This document shows, in pieces, positions 1-63,480 of a DNA stretch of 64,000 bases. Both the position numbers and the translations under genes were made by a program. This DNA is from Pseudocercospora fijiensis CIRAD86 (taxonomy: Eukaryota; Ascomycota; Dothideomycetes; Mycosphaerellales; Mycosphaerellaceae), in contig NW_006921543.1 in the NCBI RefSeq assembly GCF_000340215.1, forward strand, positions 930,001 through 994,000. Direction: 5' to 3'. The notes beneath the pieces were generated by a model. That model did not search any database. It worked only from the letters and a program-made list of their open reading frames with translations, and was not told the origin of the DNA. Within the stretch, counting starts at the first letter, position 1; the number at the start of each line of letters is the position of its first letter.

Positions 1-2330
1 TACAAAAATAATTATAACTACTAGTATTTACTTCTATAAGATTCTTAACCCGCCTAGAACTCCCCCCGCTATTCTATTCCTATCCTATTCGTATTCTATT
101 CCTACCCTATTCTTATTCCTTCGTTACCGCTCTAAGAGCCTTTAAGCTATCGTCCGCGAGATCTTAGAACAATACTTAGTATTTATAGCTATAGAAGAGG
201 TCTTAGGTCTATCCGTTTCGTAAATAGGTCGGATAGCGATCGTACTATCCCTACTAACGTAGAAGACCGATAGCGCTCCTAAAATTGATCTAAATAGAAT
301 AAGAATAGACTTACAATCGTTTAAGATCTAAATAAGAGTAGGCTTACCGCGTTTCCTCGCTTATATCTAGGTACTCGAATAGAACTATAAGAGAGAGGCT
401 ATAGATCGGGAAATCCCTATTAAGGATATAAGGGCTACTAAGCTAGTACTAGCTTAGGCGGAGGGGCTACCCGGACTAATAGCGTAGGCGTAATAGGCGG
501 ATTAATCGAAGGCTCGGGCGTAGGCCTTTTCGGAAGCTAAGCCGGGAGGGATTCGGTACTAGGCTCTCGCTTAATATTAGAATCCGAAACGGATGTTATT
601 AGTTTCGGATTACAAGAAGGCGCCGACGGGGCATTTATAGCATTCTATTTAGAAGCGGATACCGCGAGCTTCTCGAGGTCCCCGAGGGGGTTTTCTTCCT
701 CTAGGTTATAGACCGAGCCCTCCGACTTATCCGAAGAAATTACTATCGGCGCTAATTTATACGATTTAGAAATACTAGAAATATTAGTAAGAGGTCGATA
801 ATAGATAGAATAAAACGAAGATAATTGCTTACCGCCGTCGCGACTCTTTAGTTTTATTCTTATCGTCCGGAGCAGTCCTATAAGCAAGGTTAATTTTTTT
901 AAGGCATATTTCTACTATCGTAGGTTGAATAGATTCGTATTCTAATTACAAACCTTTTTATCGGACTCGATTTCCGGATAGCGACAGGACTCTTAGGCCG
1001 TACCGCTATAGGACTTAGTCCTAGCTATTCTAATTCGTCGTCGTGCTCGTTAGCGTCGCTATCGTTAGTACTTATCGATAGGGTTCTTTCTCGAGGTATT
1101 AGATTTTTCGAAGATATAGCCGTTTTATCTCGATTAGACCTATAATTTATTAGTACTAAATTAAGTATAGAAATAGAGCTATTTAAAGACTTAGTATTTT
1201 AACCTATTGCCTTTACCGACCGAGATCCTTTAGCCTTACCGCCCCTAAGAAAAGTTAGTAAAAAATCATTTAAATCTAAAATTATTAAGAAAGCCCGAGT
1301 ACTATTATTAGATTCTTATTAGTTTAAGAATAGTTTAATAGTACTTATTGCTTTCTTATTAGTATTAGAAGGGTATCTTCTAACCCTAACGCTACGCTAA
1401 CTATACTAAAAAAACCCTACTTATAAGGTCTCTCTACCCGAAATAATGTCCTCGAGGTTAGCCGCGAACTTAGCCTTAGCCTTACTCTTCTTAGATAAGC
1501 ATATGCTACGTAGGGTAGTAGGCTTTTCTAAAACGAATAAGAAACTATTAGTACTTTTTCTTAAACTATTCTAAAACTAATAATATACCGATCCTATCTA
1601 CCTTCTTTAGGGTAGTATTAGTAGCCTTCTTTAGCGTCTTCGGCTTTAGCGTACTTGCCGCCTTTTTAGTCTCGTTAATATAGGCGTTATTAGTAGCGAT
1701 AGCTACTTTACGATACTATTCTAAATAGAATTAGCCGGTATTTAAACGTTTCTAAAACTATTTAGATTAGTATTATATACCTTTAGCCTGTTTCTTCGCC
1801 TTCTATCTACCTTAACCTTTTCTCTTCTTAAATATAAGCCTATATCTACCTTTATCGGTATTTATATATATATAGGCGAGGAGGGCGGAGGAGTCTTAGA
1901 ATAGCTTATACTAAAACTAATTAGATACTATTATTAATATATTTAGATTAGGAAAAACTTACTAAATATATATCGTTATCCTTACTAGCAGTAACGCGAT
2001 AGATTACCTCGCCGAGTACTAGAATTTGCTCGTCCGTTAAGAAGCTATCTTCGTCTATAACTAACTTAAATACGTCGAAGCCCTAAAAGCAATTAGAAAT
2101 AAATAGCAATAGAATAATAAAAGGACTTATTAATAGTTTTATATTCTTACCCGCTATATCGATATATACGAGGTAGTCCTTATTATTAATAAGCTTCTAA
2201 GATAGGGCTATAGTAGAATCGAGTTTAAATAGATTAGTAAATCGAGTTTAAATAGATTAAGATTAGATTCTAAATAGACTAACGCTAGTAGAAGCTACTA
2301 TAGTAGGGGAAAGGAATAAGGGTTGCTTTC
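1..2330. mobile_element. RIP-degraded repeat relic, family not identified
   Basis: Almost no CA or TG dinucleotides remain: by eye the first 300 bases hold two CA and one TG, while TA is abundant and CG is retained. That is the footprint of CpA-to-TpA mutation (RIP). On the minus strand, roughly 2230 down to 1890 gives one readable frame of about 110 codons whose internal stops are TAA/TAG, with stretches such as VFKLVIDEDSFLTDEQ and LGEVIYRVTASKDNDIYLV, so a coding element once lay here. I could not place it in a transposon family. Normal composition resumes near 2440, just before the first host gene. Confidence 0.75.
2217..2259. repeat. Direct repeat, 20-bp unit x2, period 23
   Basis: The 20-mer beginning aatcgagttt occurs at 2217-2236 and again at 2240-2259. 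It sits inside the RIP-mutated block and is probably part of the decayed repeat. Confidence 0.7.
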
Positions 2331-58347: not shown

Positions 58348-59088
58348 GGGTCTTTCGACACACGAACCTCGGCATCGATTAAACACCAGTCCTTGGTGCT
58401 GTTTCGAGTCCTCATGAGGTAGCGGTCCTGAACCACCTTCAACTTTCAACGTCAGTCTCGTTAATCCCCTGCTGTTTCAAAAAGAGTTCGGAGAGCAGGA
58501 TTGAGATCTCGACCCGTGAACGATGAGGAACTTCCCGTAGCATTACAATGTCAGAGGCTCATTAGGGTATCATCAAGAGGTTCGCAAGTGTTAACATGAA
58601 TGACGCCGCCAATGTCGAGGGTAGAGAACGCAGGTGTCGTTCTTCAGGAAGTCCTAGATTGGCTTGCACTAAGTTCCTTCTACTGCTTAGATCATGTTTT
58701 CCAGTTCGGCCAGATCATGCTCAAGTATGCGCAGCAGATGATGTTGTTGTTTCTGCATATTCGCGCCGGCGTCTTATGCATCGTTAGCAACCGAAGATAC
58801 ATACGGCGGCCACTCCGTGCTCAAGTCGAAGCCACGGCGCCAGCTGACAGCTGAGAGATGCGGCATGACTCTGCAGACAGCTCCCTGCCGAGGTGTAGCA
58901 TTTGCAGAATCACTATACCAAGGACCATGATAGTGGGCGTCAAATCGCTCTTCTGCACACTTCAATGCGACGTGCATCCTCGACACGTTCAGACTTCAGT
59001 ATGAGTGCTTGCTTGGGCACACATACCGCTTCCAGTTGCGCGTCTTGCGGTGAGTGGAAGAAGGTTGATGCCAGCCAGCGACGGAGCT
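58348..59088. other. Interval left of the TIR element
   Basis: 740 bp of normal composition, no recognisable gene; small frames of 60-84 codons only. Confidence 0.5.
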
Positions 59089-59115
59089 CCATACATACCA
59101 GATTGTCAATGGAGG
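59089..59115 (+). repeat. Left terminal inverted repeat, 27 bp
   Basis: Begins ccatacataccagattg and ends atggagg. Its exact reverse complement is at 63122-63148. It contains several CA and TG steps and is not RIP-mutated, unlike the interior. Confidence 0.88.
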
Positions 59116-59218
59116 GTTGGCTTCACTTCAGTCCATTGTCCTATTGCGCCTTCCTTACTAACCTCACTATGCCTATTGTCGCGACAAACCTCACTCAGAC
59201 TCGCTACACTTTCGCGCC

Positions 59219-60007
59219 TTGCCTCGCAATGTTCTTCTTCTATCGACAACACCGATAGCGACACCGATACCGACAGTAGCAGCCGCTATAACTGGTATTC
59301 CGCGAGACCTTATTCTCAGCGTAGCTTTAGTAGCTTTAGCTTCAACTTCAGCAGCGTACTTACTAGTAGCGCACTTACTAGTAGGAGGAGGAGAATATTC
59401 ATCGTAAGTCGCGAGGCGCATCGCTATAGACTCGCTGCTAACTCGCTCTAGACTTCGACGCCCTACGACTATAAATACCTACGATTTCTAGTACTATAGC
59501 GCGCAGATATAGCAAGAGCTGCTCGATTAGACAGCGATACCGGATAAGAAGAAGGCGGTATTGAATAGACTGCGGAAATATAAGGCTACTGGAATTATTA
59601 TAGAAACGGACTCTAGCAAGCTTGCACTAGCGCTATGCTACTACTATATACGCTCTAATAACTTTGAGTGTCGTATACTTAATACTAAGGGCGAGCGTGT
59701 CTACGCTTATTACAAGTGTAAGGGCAAGTCTAGCTATACGGCTAGTATAGAAGAGGTTGAAGAAGACGATAGAAACAGCGAGCTAGCCGCGATACAGGCG
59801 CGAGTCGAGGCCGTAGAGGCAAAGAATACTAAACTAGAGGCAAAGATTAAGGCATTGGAAGCTAGGTTCGATAAGTTAGAAGGATATTGCCTCTCGTAGT
59901 TCAAATAGCTTAAGAATAAGGCTATTATTAAGTCTAAGGATGTATATACGATATAGAAGGAGCTATAGCCAAATAGCGATCGCGAGCCACTAGTAGATAA
60001 TATTTAA
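59219..60007 (+). pseudogene. Element ORF A: coiled-coil protein, decayed
   Basis: One frame of 262 codons ending at TAA 60005-60007, crossed by TAA/TAG codons at likely Gln positions (for example 59405-59407). Readable parts are LNRLRKYKATGIIIETDSSK, LALALCYYYIRSNNFECRIL and a clear coiled coil (ELAAIQARVEAVEAKNTKLE, AKIKALEARFDKLEGYCLS), followed by KNKAIIKSKDVYTI. The longest uninterrupted piece is 59561-59899. The start codon is not determined. I do not recognise the family. It is convergent with ORF B. Confidence 0.55.
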
Positions 60008-60010
60008 GGA

Positions 60011-60043
60011 GCGAGTCTATAGCGAGTCTATAGCGAGTCTATA
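60011..60043. repeat. 11-bp tandem repeat gcgagtctata, 3 copies
   Basis: Units at 60011, 60022 and 60033, lying exactly between the convergent ORF A and ORF B. The same unit recurs at 61713-61758 in the integrase frame. Confidence 0.9.
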
Positions 60044-60045
60044 TT

Positions 60046-61275
60046 TCAATTTCCTTTCTTCTTCGATCGTGTCTCTATAGACAATAGATTAACTAGCTTC
60101 TAAGCACGCTTTAGCTTCTAACTCTTCTGTCCGCTCTAACTATCTTACTAGCTATCTTGCTAGCTATCTTGCTAGCCATCTTGCTAACCTTGCTAACCTT
60201 ACTAACCTTGCTAGCCTTGCTAGCCTTACTAGCCTTCTTGCTAACTATCTTGCTAACTATCTTGCTAGTCCTTAGTTTCGCTCGACTCTTTTAGAACAGG
60301 CGTAACTCGCGGTAGCCTCGCGGTGTCCTCGCCGCTTAGGTTAATAAACTTAGGCGGCTTTTTAGTATCGATTACCTTCTCCTTCTATAGCTTCTCTTAC
60401 TTAATCTCTATAGATAGAACAACCCCGTCCTAACTCGCTATAGCACTCGCGCTACTACTCGCGGTAGGAGTACTTAGCCGGTGCTTCCGCTTTAGTTGCC
60501 TTTGTTGCTATAGCTTCCGCTGTTGTTAGATACAGATTTTAAGGTAATAGATTAGTAGCTACTTTGTTGCTTTCCCTCCTATTTGCGGTTTAAAGAGTAT
60601 AAGAGCCTCTTTAACTAGTCCTAGGCCGAGTACTTTAGAAGCGACTTTCTCTAGTAACAAGCGCTTATTATCGAAATCAGTATAGAAGAAGTAGTCCGTA
60701 TAGTCGTCGACCTAATAGACGCTACCTTACGGTAGGTCCTTAGCGTCAATCCGACTAAGAACCTAGTCTATAAGTAATATATTAGCTTCTTCGAAGTCTT
60801 TGTTAGACTAGATATTAGTAATAGAAGTCTATAGGACTAGCGGATTATATTCCTATAGGTCGACTCTACCCCTACGAGAAACCTCTACTCGCTAGCTAAA
60901 AACTAAATAGCGGCAGGTAAATAATACCTTTATTAGCTCCTTTAATAGTTGTATAGGTATTAGTAGACGTTGCGAGAGGCTCCGAGATCTAGCATTTGGT
61001 CGAGAAGTTGGCTTATACTGCTAAATAGCAGCATTGCGTACAGTATTCGCCGCCTTAGGTAGAGAAGGGAACGCATTAAAGCCTCGTACTATACTCGCAG
61101 TTGAACTCGTAGTAGCAGCGGCAGCAGTAGCGGCTGCTACTAACGGCTCGCGTACAAATCGCTCGGTTAGTAGATTAGGGTTCTTAAGACTACATTGGTT
61201 ACAGAATGCGTATGCTTTCAATAGTGTTATATAGTTGGCGCCGGTAATAGTACAAAAGGTACCCTAGACAGGCAT
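60046..61275 (-). pseudogene. Element ORF B: Gln-rich protein, decayed
   Basis: A 410-codon frame from ATG 61275 (MPV then GTFCTITGANYITLLKAYAF) to TGA 60046, with no frameshift and many internal TAA/TAG but no internal TGA. An N-terminal CNQCSLKNPNLLTERF (Cys pair) precedes an Ala/Thr-rich linker and a charged middle (QGSVYQVDDYTDYFFYTDFD if stops are read as Gln). Then come LLLEKVASKVLGLGLVKEAL and KKPPKFINLSGEDTARLPRV. The C-terminus is built from short QD/QG repeats in which CAG became TAG (tandem repeat at about 60130-60275), ending RSKKKGN. Family not recognised. Confidence 0.58.
60130..60275. repeat. Short-period tandem repeat in ORF B
   Basis: Nested 6-12 bp units of the type cttgctagctat and cttgctaacc, encoding the Gln-rich C-terminus of ORF B on the minus strand. 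Confidence 0.8.
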
Positions 61276-61418
61276 TATTAGCAGTAGAACTGAGGTAGAA
61301 CTATAGCAGTAGTATAGAGGTAGAACAAGATAGGAATTGAAAGATTAAGAAGGAAATAGAACTGAAATAAGCGACTCGCGGCCGGCTCGCGGCCGGCTCG
61401 CAAATCCCTTATTTCAGA

Positions 61419-63040
61419 TTAGTATATATTATTTGCAAACTCAATCAATCTAGCCCCGGTATTCGCCCTACCTAACGTCTAATTACGAGCTGCTAATAGC
61501 TTGTCTAACTCCATTAGTTTAGGCTCTAACCCTATAGCTATATGCTCGGCAATTAGCTATCGAAGAAGTAAGTATACCTAGCGGTGAACTCGCTCTCTAT
61601 CGCTATTATTCTCGCTACTACTAACTAGATACGAGAAGCCGCGAGTCTATAATGCTATCTAACACTAAGTAAGCGTAGCCTCGGGCAGGTAGGCTTTAAG
61701 ATCTAGGAATTAGCGAGTCTATTAGCGAGTCTATAGCGAGTCTATAGCGAGTACTATAGAATCTAATATATACCGAATCCTTGAAGGTCTTGCTCTATAT
61801 TATTAAGTACGCTATTAGGTATAGGAATACCTTAATGAGAATGCCCGCTCAGCTCTAGATAATGGTGTAGAATATGCGGAATACCTAGTACGACGTATAG
61901 TCGATTAGCCTGCTTCCTAATCCGATAGCTATTCTAGAGGTAAACAAATTCGAGGACTTTATAGCGTATAATTGGTATGTAGACTGCAAGGAAGGCAATC
62001 CGATCGGCTAGCAATTCAGCATCGTATAGTAACTCGCGCAGTAACTCGTAAAAATAGCCCCTCTAGCTATTCAATGCGGGTGCTTACTAGCGCTACTATG
62101 CCTCGATCCGCTAGTTTATCTTGCTCGTACCGTATTTAAAGCAGTCTTCGAAAGCCAGTAGTTCTAGTTCTAGTTCCGGTTCTAGGTTACTACGAGTCGT
62201 AAGGCGAGTCGCATAGTGAGCGTCCGCGGCTAGAATCGTTTCCGCCCTACGGTCTAATCGGATAATCTATAGCATTACACTACTATTCTTAATCGTTGCA
62301 ATATATTAAGCGAGTACGGATATAGCTATACGGCTAGTAATCCCTACGTAGACCTAGATAATGTAACGCGAGTGGACATTAATAGCTACGTAGATCTATA
62401 TCCCCTAATGCTCGAATTTATAGTAAGCATCTATTGATATTGCGTAGCTAGGGCCTAGTATAACAATCGCTCTATAGTGCTCTCGCGCCCGCTCGCGGCG
62501 GACTCGCAACCCTTTAGGATTTAGTAAGCAAGCTATACGATACAGCCGATCTCTACCAATAATATTGTATTTAGACCTAATATAGGTATATAGGTGCCGT
62601 CGGCCGAAGGACTCTACCGCAGACTTCTCGAGCTCTTCCTATAAGACCTCTACTATCTCCTCTTCCGCTTCTATCTATCTATCTCGCGATAATGCCTTCT
62701 TTAATCTAAGCTCTTAACGTATCCGTTGATATCTCCGCTAGCTAATATCAAATCTATCTATCTTTAGTACTTTAACCGCTTCTTTATTAGTTAAGCGTAA
62801 AGCGGAGAAGGTATATACGACTCGGATCTTTAGTGCCTCGACATTATTAACTCGGTTATAGTAAGCGTAATAGCTATAATTAACCCCCTATTCCTTAAGC
62901 CTCCGACAAAGCGTAGAAAGAGCTATCTAGTAACTAGTCTCTTATATAAGGTGCTATAGGATTTCGCCTTGTATAGTGCCGCTATTAACCTGTGAGGTTA
63001 TCTAAGCCCTCTATAGCGAGAGATCGATACGTAGAGGCAT
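61419..63040 (-). pseudogene. Element integrase-core (rve/DDE) protein, decayed
   Basis: From ATG 63040 (MPLRIDLSL) one frame runs over 420 codons, crossed by about two dozen TAA/TAG and no TGA. The N-terminal helix-turn-helix-like part is STLCRRLKE plus VKVLKIDRFDIS. FGRRHLYTYIRSKYNIIGRD and RLYRIACLLNPKGLRVRRER then lead into the catalytic core: SIDAY (D204), IYVAINVHSRYII, VYVGITSR, IIRLDRRAETI (D263), FEDCFKYGTSKIN followed by RIEA (E313), and LLADRIAFLAVYIPIIR. D-58-D-49-E matches the retroviral-type fold, and the blocks match fungal integrase core domain proteins. At 61713-61758 the 11-bp repeat shifts the frame. After it the family's C-terminus (FLDLKAYLPEATLT, HRxVYLLLRxLIAEHIAIG, MELDKLLAARN) continues to about 61420; the unshifted frame ends at TGA 61445. 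Confidence 0.75.
61713..61758. repeat. 11-12 bp tandem repeat gcgagtctata, 4 copies
   Basis: Copies at 61713, 61725, 61736 and 61747; two are 12 bases long. The array coincides with the integrase frameshift. Confidence 0.88.
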
Positions 63041-63121
63041 TTTGCGAGTTAACAGCGAGTGTAGTGCGAGGGCAAACATAGAAAGTTGGTCGTAGAGGTG
63101 GGTTGGTGGAGGCGGTAAGAA

Positions 63122-63148
63122 CCTCCATTGACAATCTGGTATGTATGG
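63122..63148 (-). repeat. Right terminal inverted repeat, 27 bp
   Basis: Exact reverse complement of 59089-59115. Unmutated, CA/TG-containing sequence extends about 70 bp inside it. Confidence 0.88.
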
Positions 63149-63480
63149 GCCTCCCTAGCCAGCCGCAAGCCAGCCAGCCACAAAATGCGCACGTACGTCC
63201 TAGCAGCCTTTTTGGGCTTGCACAGATATGCATAACCACATCTCGCCTCGCCAGTACTCAGCCCTGATTGACCCGGTTCACAGTCCGGCTGGCTCCCACA
63301 GGTCAGTCGTCCACATGCAGAGTCGGGCAAGGCGAAACATGGCAGCTAGAAGCATGGCAGCCATGAAGCTAGGATGCCGGCTGGACAGCAAAGCAATGCG
63401 ATTATAACGACCTGTTGCTCTGCTCTCTCGCATGCCTTCTTGAGGCATCTCTGCACTACTGGTAGGACAATCAAGACACC
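63149..63480. promoter_or_regulatory. Upstream region of the membrane-protein gene
   Basis: 332 bp between the TIR element and the next ATG. It begins with a gccagcc-rich stretch (63156-63180). No gene seen. Confidence 0.5.

What the first reader, a model, noticed from the sequence alone, without database searches (positions are those of the whole stretch)
59089..63148. Multi-gene, TIR-bounded integrase transposon (possibly undescribed family)
A perfect 27-bp inverted repeat encloses 4.06 kb that carries a fungal integrase-core protein with an intact D204/D263/E313 triad and two further long ORFs that are not standard transposase partners (Gln-rich; coiled-coil). Fungal integrase-core proteins are common in databases but are seldom tied to defined ends and accessory genes. 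Here ends, gene order and orientation (A+, B-, integrase-) can all be read.
Basis: partly seen in the sequence, partly recalled or inferred. Interest (0 to 1): 0.86.

Follow-up and report, generated by a model that had tools for sequence, protein, structure and literature searches.

The report
Three-gene transposon with unlike ends
This is a decayed jumping gene of a fungus that carries an integrase-type enzyme and two likely helper genes, has one left and one right type of end, bears segments likely swapped between its versions, and shares its ends with a short gene-less hitchhiker that the enzyme likely also moves.

Summary
The element is 59080-63157 (4,078 bp), not 59089-63148: the perfect 27-bp repeat lies inside two different 9-bp tips, GACGGAGCT (left) and TAGGGAGGC (right), flanked by the 6-bp duplication GCCAGC. 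Of 20 fetched copies, 15 have exact 6-bp duplications there. The integrase is PF24764 (rva_4), riddled with RIP-type stops. Of 39 near-full-length integrase copies, 27 keep genes A and B at fixed distances. The anatomy fits the published IS3EU/GingerRoot superfamily (6-bp duplications, TA tips, no HHCC domain) except that the left tip is GA. I call it an IS3EU-like variant.

(3) A 1.41-kb palindromic gene-less element (21 end pairs of that size) shares only the ~35-bp ends and also makes 6-bp duplications. The functions of A and B are unknown; B found no database relative.

The parts
59074..59079 (.). left target-site duplication GCCAGC
   Evidence: sequence
59080..59115 (+). left end: L tip GACGGAGCT (59080-59088) plus 27-bp inverted repeat (59089-59115)
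   Evidence: copy comparison
59450..60004 (+). gene A, coiled-coil, read through 7 TAG; its start was not determined
   Evidence: codon-position bias and frame-keeping gaps
60010..60049 (+). first array of the 11-bp repeat GCGAGTCTATA, at the left border of the exchanged B segment
60094..61275 (-). gene B, Gln-rich C-terminal part, read through TAG/TAA
   Evidence: frame-keeping gaps but no codon-position bias
61451..63040 (-). integrase read-through frame (530 codons before a TGA); helix-turn-helix region and rva_4 core lie in 61736-63040; the far C-terminus continues in another frame in this copy
61713..61763 (+). second array of the 11-bp repeat, near the right border of the exchanged B segment
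63122..63157 (-). right end: 27-bp inverted repeat (63122-63148) plus R tip TAGGGAGGC read on the minus strand (63149-63157)
63158..63163 (.). right target-site duplication GCCAGC
   Evidence: sequence

Best explanation
The 4,078-bp unit at 59080-63157 is a mutation-riddled DNA transposon with one L-type and one R-type end, a 6-bp target duplication and three genes, two of them likely accessory, and it was most likely moved by its own DDE integrase of the IS3EU/GingerRoot kind. The inferred mechanism: the N-terminal helix-turn-helix region binds the inner repeat of each end, the DDE core joins the ends to target DNA with a 6-bp stagger, and the complex needs one L and one R tip. The A-left, B and integrase segments were likely exchanged between co-resident subfamilies by recombination, with the B borders near two 11-bp repeat arrays. 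A 1.41-kb gene-less palindromic element has the same ends and was likely mobilised in trans. Shown: borders, duplications, co-occurrence of the three genes, domain, segment distances, L-R pairing, the end-sharing element. Inferred: end binding, catalysis, the need for an L/R pair, the roles of A and B, recombination as the cause of the mosaic, RIP as the cause of the decay.
For: 6-bp duplications at the corrected borders: exact in 15 of 20 copies, at most 1 of 20 in any of 48 shifted registers; also in L035 and L042 and 3 of 4 gene-less elements. PF24764 in 8 of 8 aligned copies; triad shared with four relatives; Clr5 domain above cut-off in P0005 and relic L032. A and B at fixed distances in 27 of 39 integrase copies. 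Segment distances that contradict one history. 53 of 53 inward-facing end pairs are L with R. Inner repeat type equal at both ends and matched to integrase type in 22 of 22 elements.
Against: The left tip is GA, whereas complete IS3EU families are described as always TA..TA. The window copy scores just below the PF24764 cut-off (23.5 vs 26). B shows no codon-position bias and no relative (both searches hit the candidate cap). L-R pairing and type matching reflect shared descent as well as function. The integrase core was not modelled with confidence. Five of 20 copies lack an exact 6-bp duplication. No mobility was observed.
Confidence: 0.82

Rival explanations
1. It is an ordinary IS3EU family with nothing special: the G at the left tip and the fixed L-R pairing are accidents of descent from one ancestor, and A and B are decaying passengers.
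For: All copies lie in one genome and share ancestors, so 53 of 53 is not 53 independent trials. IS3EU families with extra genes are known. B lacks codon-position bias.
Against: The L/R difference persists across three integrase types and in gene-less elements whose interior is itself a palindrome. A shows third-position bias (8, 11, 24), and gaps in A and most gaps in B keep the frame.
Confidence: 0.35
2. The mosaic pattern comes from very unequal rates or selection, not from exchange of segments between subfamilies.
For: B evolves without visible codon constraint; RIP-type transitions pile up in parallel.
Against: Only transversions were counted. Either segment can be the near-identical one: L011-L026 A-left 12.1%, B 0.3%; L011-L019 A-left 0.9%, B 16.1%; L025-L026 integrase 0.0%, B 15.9%.
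Confidence: 0.04
3. It belongs to another integrase group: Ginger1/2, Polinton, or a remnant of an LTR retrotransposon.
For: The core is distantly rve-like (PF00665 precomputed for P0003-P0006), and Polintons also make 6-bp duplications.
Against: A six-frame Pfam scan at E <= 0.05 shows no reverse transcriptase, polymerase or protease; only 4 kb; Ginger1 and Ginger2 make 4 and 4-5 bp duplications; no integrase zinc-binding domain was reported for the copies or for P0003 and P0005.
Confidence: 0.06

Closest known systems
IS3EU/GingerRoot superfamily (PMC10045372, passages)
   Same: rve-like DDE core without HHCC domain; 6-bp duplications; TA at the right tip
   Different: left tip GA instead of TA; A and B not among described genes; L and R tips differ in every copy read
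TET/JBP-carrying fungal IS3EU families (PMC12730594, passages)
   Same: 6-bp duplications; TIR over 30 bp; tips TAYGG..CCRTA in rusts (our L042 right tip is TACGG); several genes per element
   Different: their extra genes are a TET/JBP dioxygenase and an alpha-kinase; the Pfam scan of this element shows neither
Styx of Zymoseptoria (PMC10853768, passages and part 1 of section 13)
   Same: multi-gene element related to IS3EU; 36-bp TIR; 6-bp duplications; RIP-like decay in sister species

Membership tests
IS3EU/GingerRoot | 6-bp target duplication | tested here: met
   exact in 15 of 20 copies, at most 1 of 20 in 48 shifted registers
IS3EU/GingerRoot | TA..TA termini | tested here: not met
   right tip TA in 20 of 20, left tip GA in 20 of 20
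IS3EU/GingerRoot | rve-like DDE transposase core | tested here: met
   PF24764 in 8 of 8 copies, best E 1.7e-8; triad shared with P0003-P0006. That IS3EU proteins are PF24764 was not tested
IS3EU/GingerRoot | no N-terminal HHCC domain | tested here: met
   no integrase zinc-binding family listed; Clr5 domain instead in P0005 and L032
IS3EU/GingerRoot | position in a tree of reference transposases | not testable with these tools
   Repbase sequences not at hand
Ginger1/Ginger2 | 4 or 4-5 bp target duplication | tested here: not met
   6 bp
Polinton/Maverick | DNA polymerase and virus-like genes (recalled) beside 6-bp duplications | tested here: not met
   duplication length fits, but no such domain in six frames and only 4 kb
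LTR retrotransposon | reverse transcriptase and long terminal direct repeats | tested here: not met
   no such domain; ends are inverted

The most novel reading that the evidence does not exclude
An IS3EU-like transposon lineage that has become obligately two-ended (one GA tip plus one TA tip), whose A-left, B and integrase segments reassort between subfamilies while the inner terminal repeat at both ends stays matched to the integrase type, and which is parasitised by a long palindromic, gene-less element that outlives RIP because it needs only its ends.
Probability: 0.4. Interest if true: 0.75.

Novelty: new variant of a known kind. Interest (0 to 1): 0.58.

Why it matters
It ties a fungal rva_4 integrase to exact ends, target duplications, gene order and a non-autonomous partner. 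It offers a natural test of how a retroviral-like transposase tells two ends apart: three integrase types with three matching inner repeats, and L and R tips that were never seen paired with themselves. It also shows mosaic evolution inside a DNA transposon under heavy RIP-like mutation, and a gene-less partner that can stay mobile where genes cannot stay intact.

Tried and rejected
The 27-bp repeat as the element border: rejected by copy comparison.

Pfam on the first read-through of the integrase found nothing; scanning an alignment of 8 copies was needed.

Relatives of B: two searches, full length and with the Gln-rich tail removed, found none at E <= 0.001; both hit the candidate cap, so a distant relative may have been missed. 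A link between B and a ~530-aa ORF of the distant 36%-identity family looked plausible by eye but was not supported (hhalign probability 4%). No database search was made for A.

AlphaFold model of P0003 with 10 other rows: mean pLDDT 53.8, confident only in the N-terminal helices. Foldseek against PDB: 0 matches with E <= 0.001. No solved structure matched by sequence up to E 1.

The ends of the distant family (L037, L040, L041, L043) were not resolved.

'The frame stays open apart from TAG/TAA' was dropped as evidence for coding, because RIP-like decay makes TGA rare in all frames.

Host name: G000 (73.9 Mb, 30 contigs, largest 11.88 Mb) resembles published Pseudocercospora fijiensis (about 74 Mb, 56 scaffolds, largest 11.8 Mb; PMC4981457, passages). 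The idea came from recall and was not tested by sequence.

Full report
BORDERS. The window copy has a perfect 27-bp inverted repeat. Comparing 20 copies from the same genome showed conserved sequence 9 bases further out on both sides, different on the two sides: GACGGAGCT at the left (19 of 20; GATGGAGCT in 1) and TAGGGAGGC at the right (20 of 20). Outside these, 15 of 20 copies have an exact 6-bp duplication; none of 48 shifted registers gives more than 1 of 20. The other five: L020 has an exact 8-bp duplication, L027 an exact 5-bp one, L019 matches 5 of 6 and L030 4 of 6 with C/T or G/A changes, and L029 matches 6 of 7 in a 7-bp reading. In this window the element is 59080-63157, with GCCAGC at 59074-59079 and 63158-63163.

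INTEGRASE. The 8 read-through copies of an alignment match PF24764, rva_4 'Integrase core domain', in 8 of 8 (best E 1.7e-8); the window copy scores 23.5 bits, just under the cut-off of 26. The alignment found four database relatives, P0003-P0006, at 35-44% identity, all with PF24764 and PF00665 precomputed. D204, D263 and the glutamate in the motif GTSK.N..(I/V)E (E313 in the window copy) are invariant among the two copies and four relatives aligned; some other decayed copies carry K at the glutamate. P0005 and an undecayed N-terminal relic (L032) match the Clr5 domain above its cut-off; P0003 has only a weak HTH_21 hit just before the core (E 0.017). HTH_21 as a mark of IS3 transposases is recalled. 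The catalytic core was not modelled with confidence. A six-frame Pfam scan of the element at E <= 0.05 shows rva_4 and two coiled-coil-type hits, all below their cut-offs.

GENES A AND B. From I took the 39 of 98 matches that were near full length (at least 338 aa, 67-94% identity), 50 of 65 B matches and, 48 of 62 A matches, dropping shorter pieces. 27 of 39 integrase copies have both B and A at fixed distances; 7 have B near and A 9-30 kb off; 3 have both further off; 2 have B further off and no A within 40 kb. Gene A looks coding: transversions between the A types of the window and L026 fall 8, 11, 24 on codon positions 1, 2, 3 (p 0.006), and all gaps are multiples of 3 (2 of 2, 3 of 3, 1 of 1). 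B is less clear: no position bias (window vs L042: 66, 53, 62), but 14 of 14, 9 of 11 and 17 of 21 gaps in three comparisons are multiples of 3. Part of these lie in the repetitive Gln-rich tail. B has no Pfam match in L035 at E <= 0.1 and no relative found.

DECAY. TA/AT is 1.74-1.94 in the 20 copies against 0.65 in the first 59 kb of the window, and (CA+TG)/(AC+GT) is 0.21-0.55 against 1.26. This is the RIP signature (recalled; RIP is described in passages). To avoid it, the comparisons below use transversions only.

MOSAIC HISTORY. Per-segment transversion distances (16 of the 22 aligned elements are tabulated) give discrete types. L011 (the window element) and L026: A-left 12.1%, B 0.3%, integrase 0.1%. 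L011 and L019: A-left 0.9%, B 16.1%, integrase 0.5%. L025 and L026: integrase 0.0%, B 15.9%. L035: integrase 3.3% from L011, B 1.2% from L019, right part of A identical to L011. Unequal rates do not explain this, because either segment can be the near-identical one. Borders lie near element position 690 (inside gene A), near 953-964 beside an 11-bp GCGAGTCTATA array, and between about 2545 and 2713 beside a second array. Mosaic types sit at several loci with their own duplications (exact 6 bp: L026 and L028; L023, L024 and L025), so recombinant elements moved or arose repeatedly. That the arrays promote the exchange is inference; the A border has no array.

ENDS FOLLOW THE INTEGRASE. In 22 elements (L030 left out) there are three inner repeat types, AGATTGTCAAT, AGAGGCTCAAT and AAGAAGCCAAA, allowing RIP-type changes. 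Each is the same at both ends (22 of 22) and matched to integrase type: I1 in 19 elements, I2 in L035 and L036, I3 in L042. This holds although L026-L029 carry an A-left segment close to that of L042 (about 4.4%) and L035 one close to that of L011 (2.3%). The integrase helix-turn-helix region differs about twice as much as the core (4.4% vs 2.0% for I1-I2; 8.7% vs 4.8% for I1-I3). The outer ~20 bp stay nearly constant. I infer that the inner repeat is the binding site and the outer part serves cleavage and joining.

L AND R. IUPAC patterns for the I1-type ends (up to 2 mismatches) found 59 L and 57 R matches and 0 control matches. Neighbouring inward-facing ends less than 40 kb apart form 53 pairs, all L with R; 10 ends stay unpaired. 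Lengths: 20 pairs of 3.9-4.2 kb, 21 of 1.37-1.43 kb, 12 others. These are not independent trials, since copies share ancestors.

THE GENE-LESS PARTNER. Four 27-mer matches without a 4-kb partner were fetched. They are 1,380-1,410-bp elements (L044 is partly masked) that share only about 35 bp at each end with the big element, have an AT-rich interior (24-27% GC) and no stop-free stretch over 61 aa; in the three unmasked ones the interior is an imperfect palindrome of about 1.3 kb (78-82%). Three of four have exact 6-bp duplications; the fourth matches 5 of 6. A 139-bp probe gave 35 matches that start at its first base, 13 of them at 97-100% identity (40 of 203 candidates were scored). Such an element can lose bases to RIP and still move as long as its ends survive; that this transposase moved it is inferred from the shared ends.

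COMPARISON. IS3EU/GingerRoot: 6-bp duplications, TA..TA termini, no HHCC (PMC10045372, passages). Rust IS3EU families end TAYGG..CCRTA and carry TET/JBP and alpha-kinase genes (PMC12730594, passages). Styx: 36-bp TIR, 6-bp duplication, four genes (PMC10853768, passages and part 1 of section 13). Because the L tip is GA I do not file the element as a plain IS3EU member: it works like one and is best called an IS3EU-like variant. I found no description of this family in the listings for IS3EU (36 papers), IS3EU with accessory or non-autonomous terms (10 of 68 listed), IS3EU with mosaic and recombination terms (10 of 14 listed, none of the 10 holding IS3EU), or in passages of the M. fijiensis TE survey, whose class II table names Hobo-Activator, Mariner, Mutator and Harbinger (PMC3562529). 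I read passages of four of these papers and one part of a section of a fifth at most; subscription papers and Repbase were out of reach.

Noticed in passing
L034:1211-2173 (minus strand), G000:C7:3724400-3728800: An open 320-aa frame whose N-terminal part resembles the integrase helix-turn-helix region (30% identity over query 12-167) with no integrase core in the frame: a possible domesticated DNA-binding gene.
   Followed up: no
L032:1769-2347 and L033 about 1800-2248 (plus strand): Short relics of the integrase N-terminus with few or no RIP-type stops; they carry W where decayed copies have TAG, and L032 matches Clr5.
   Followed up: partly
L037, L040, L041, L043: A distant family (about 34% integrase identity) with arrays of AAAAGTTGC near both sides and a further ~530-aa read-through ORF; its ends were not resolved.
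   Followed up: partly
L045:192-1601: The gene-less element also has internal repeats of about 300 bp and folds end to end as a single DNA strand (-361.5 kcal/mol, no shuffle control at this length). Eight further probe matches at 84-86% identity suggest a second subfamily.
   Followed up: partly
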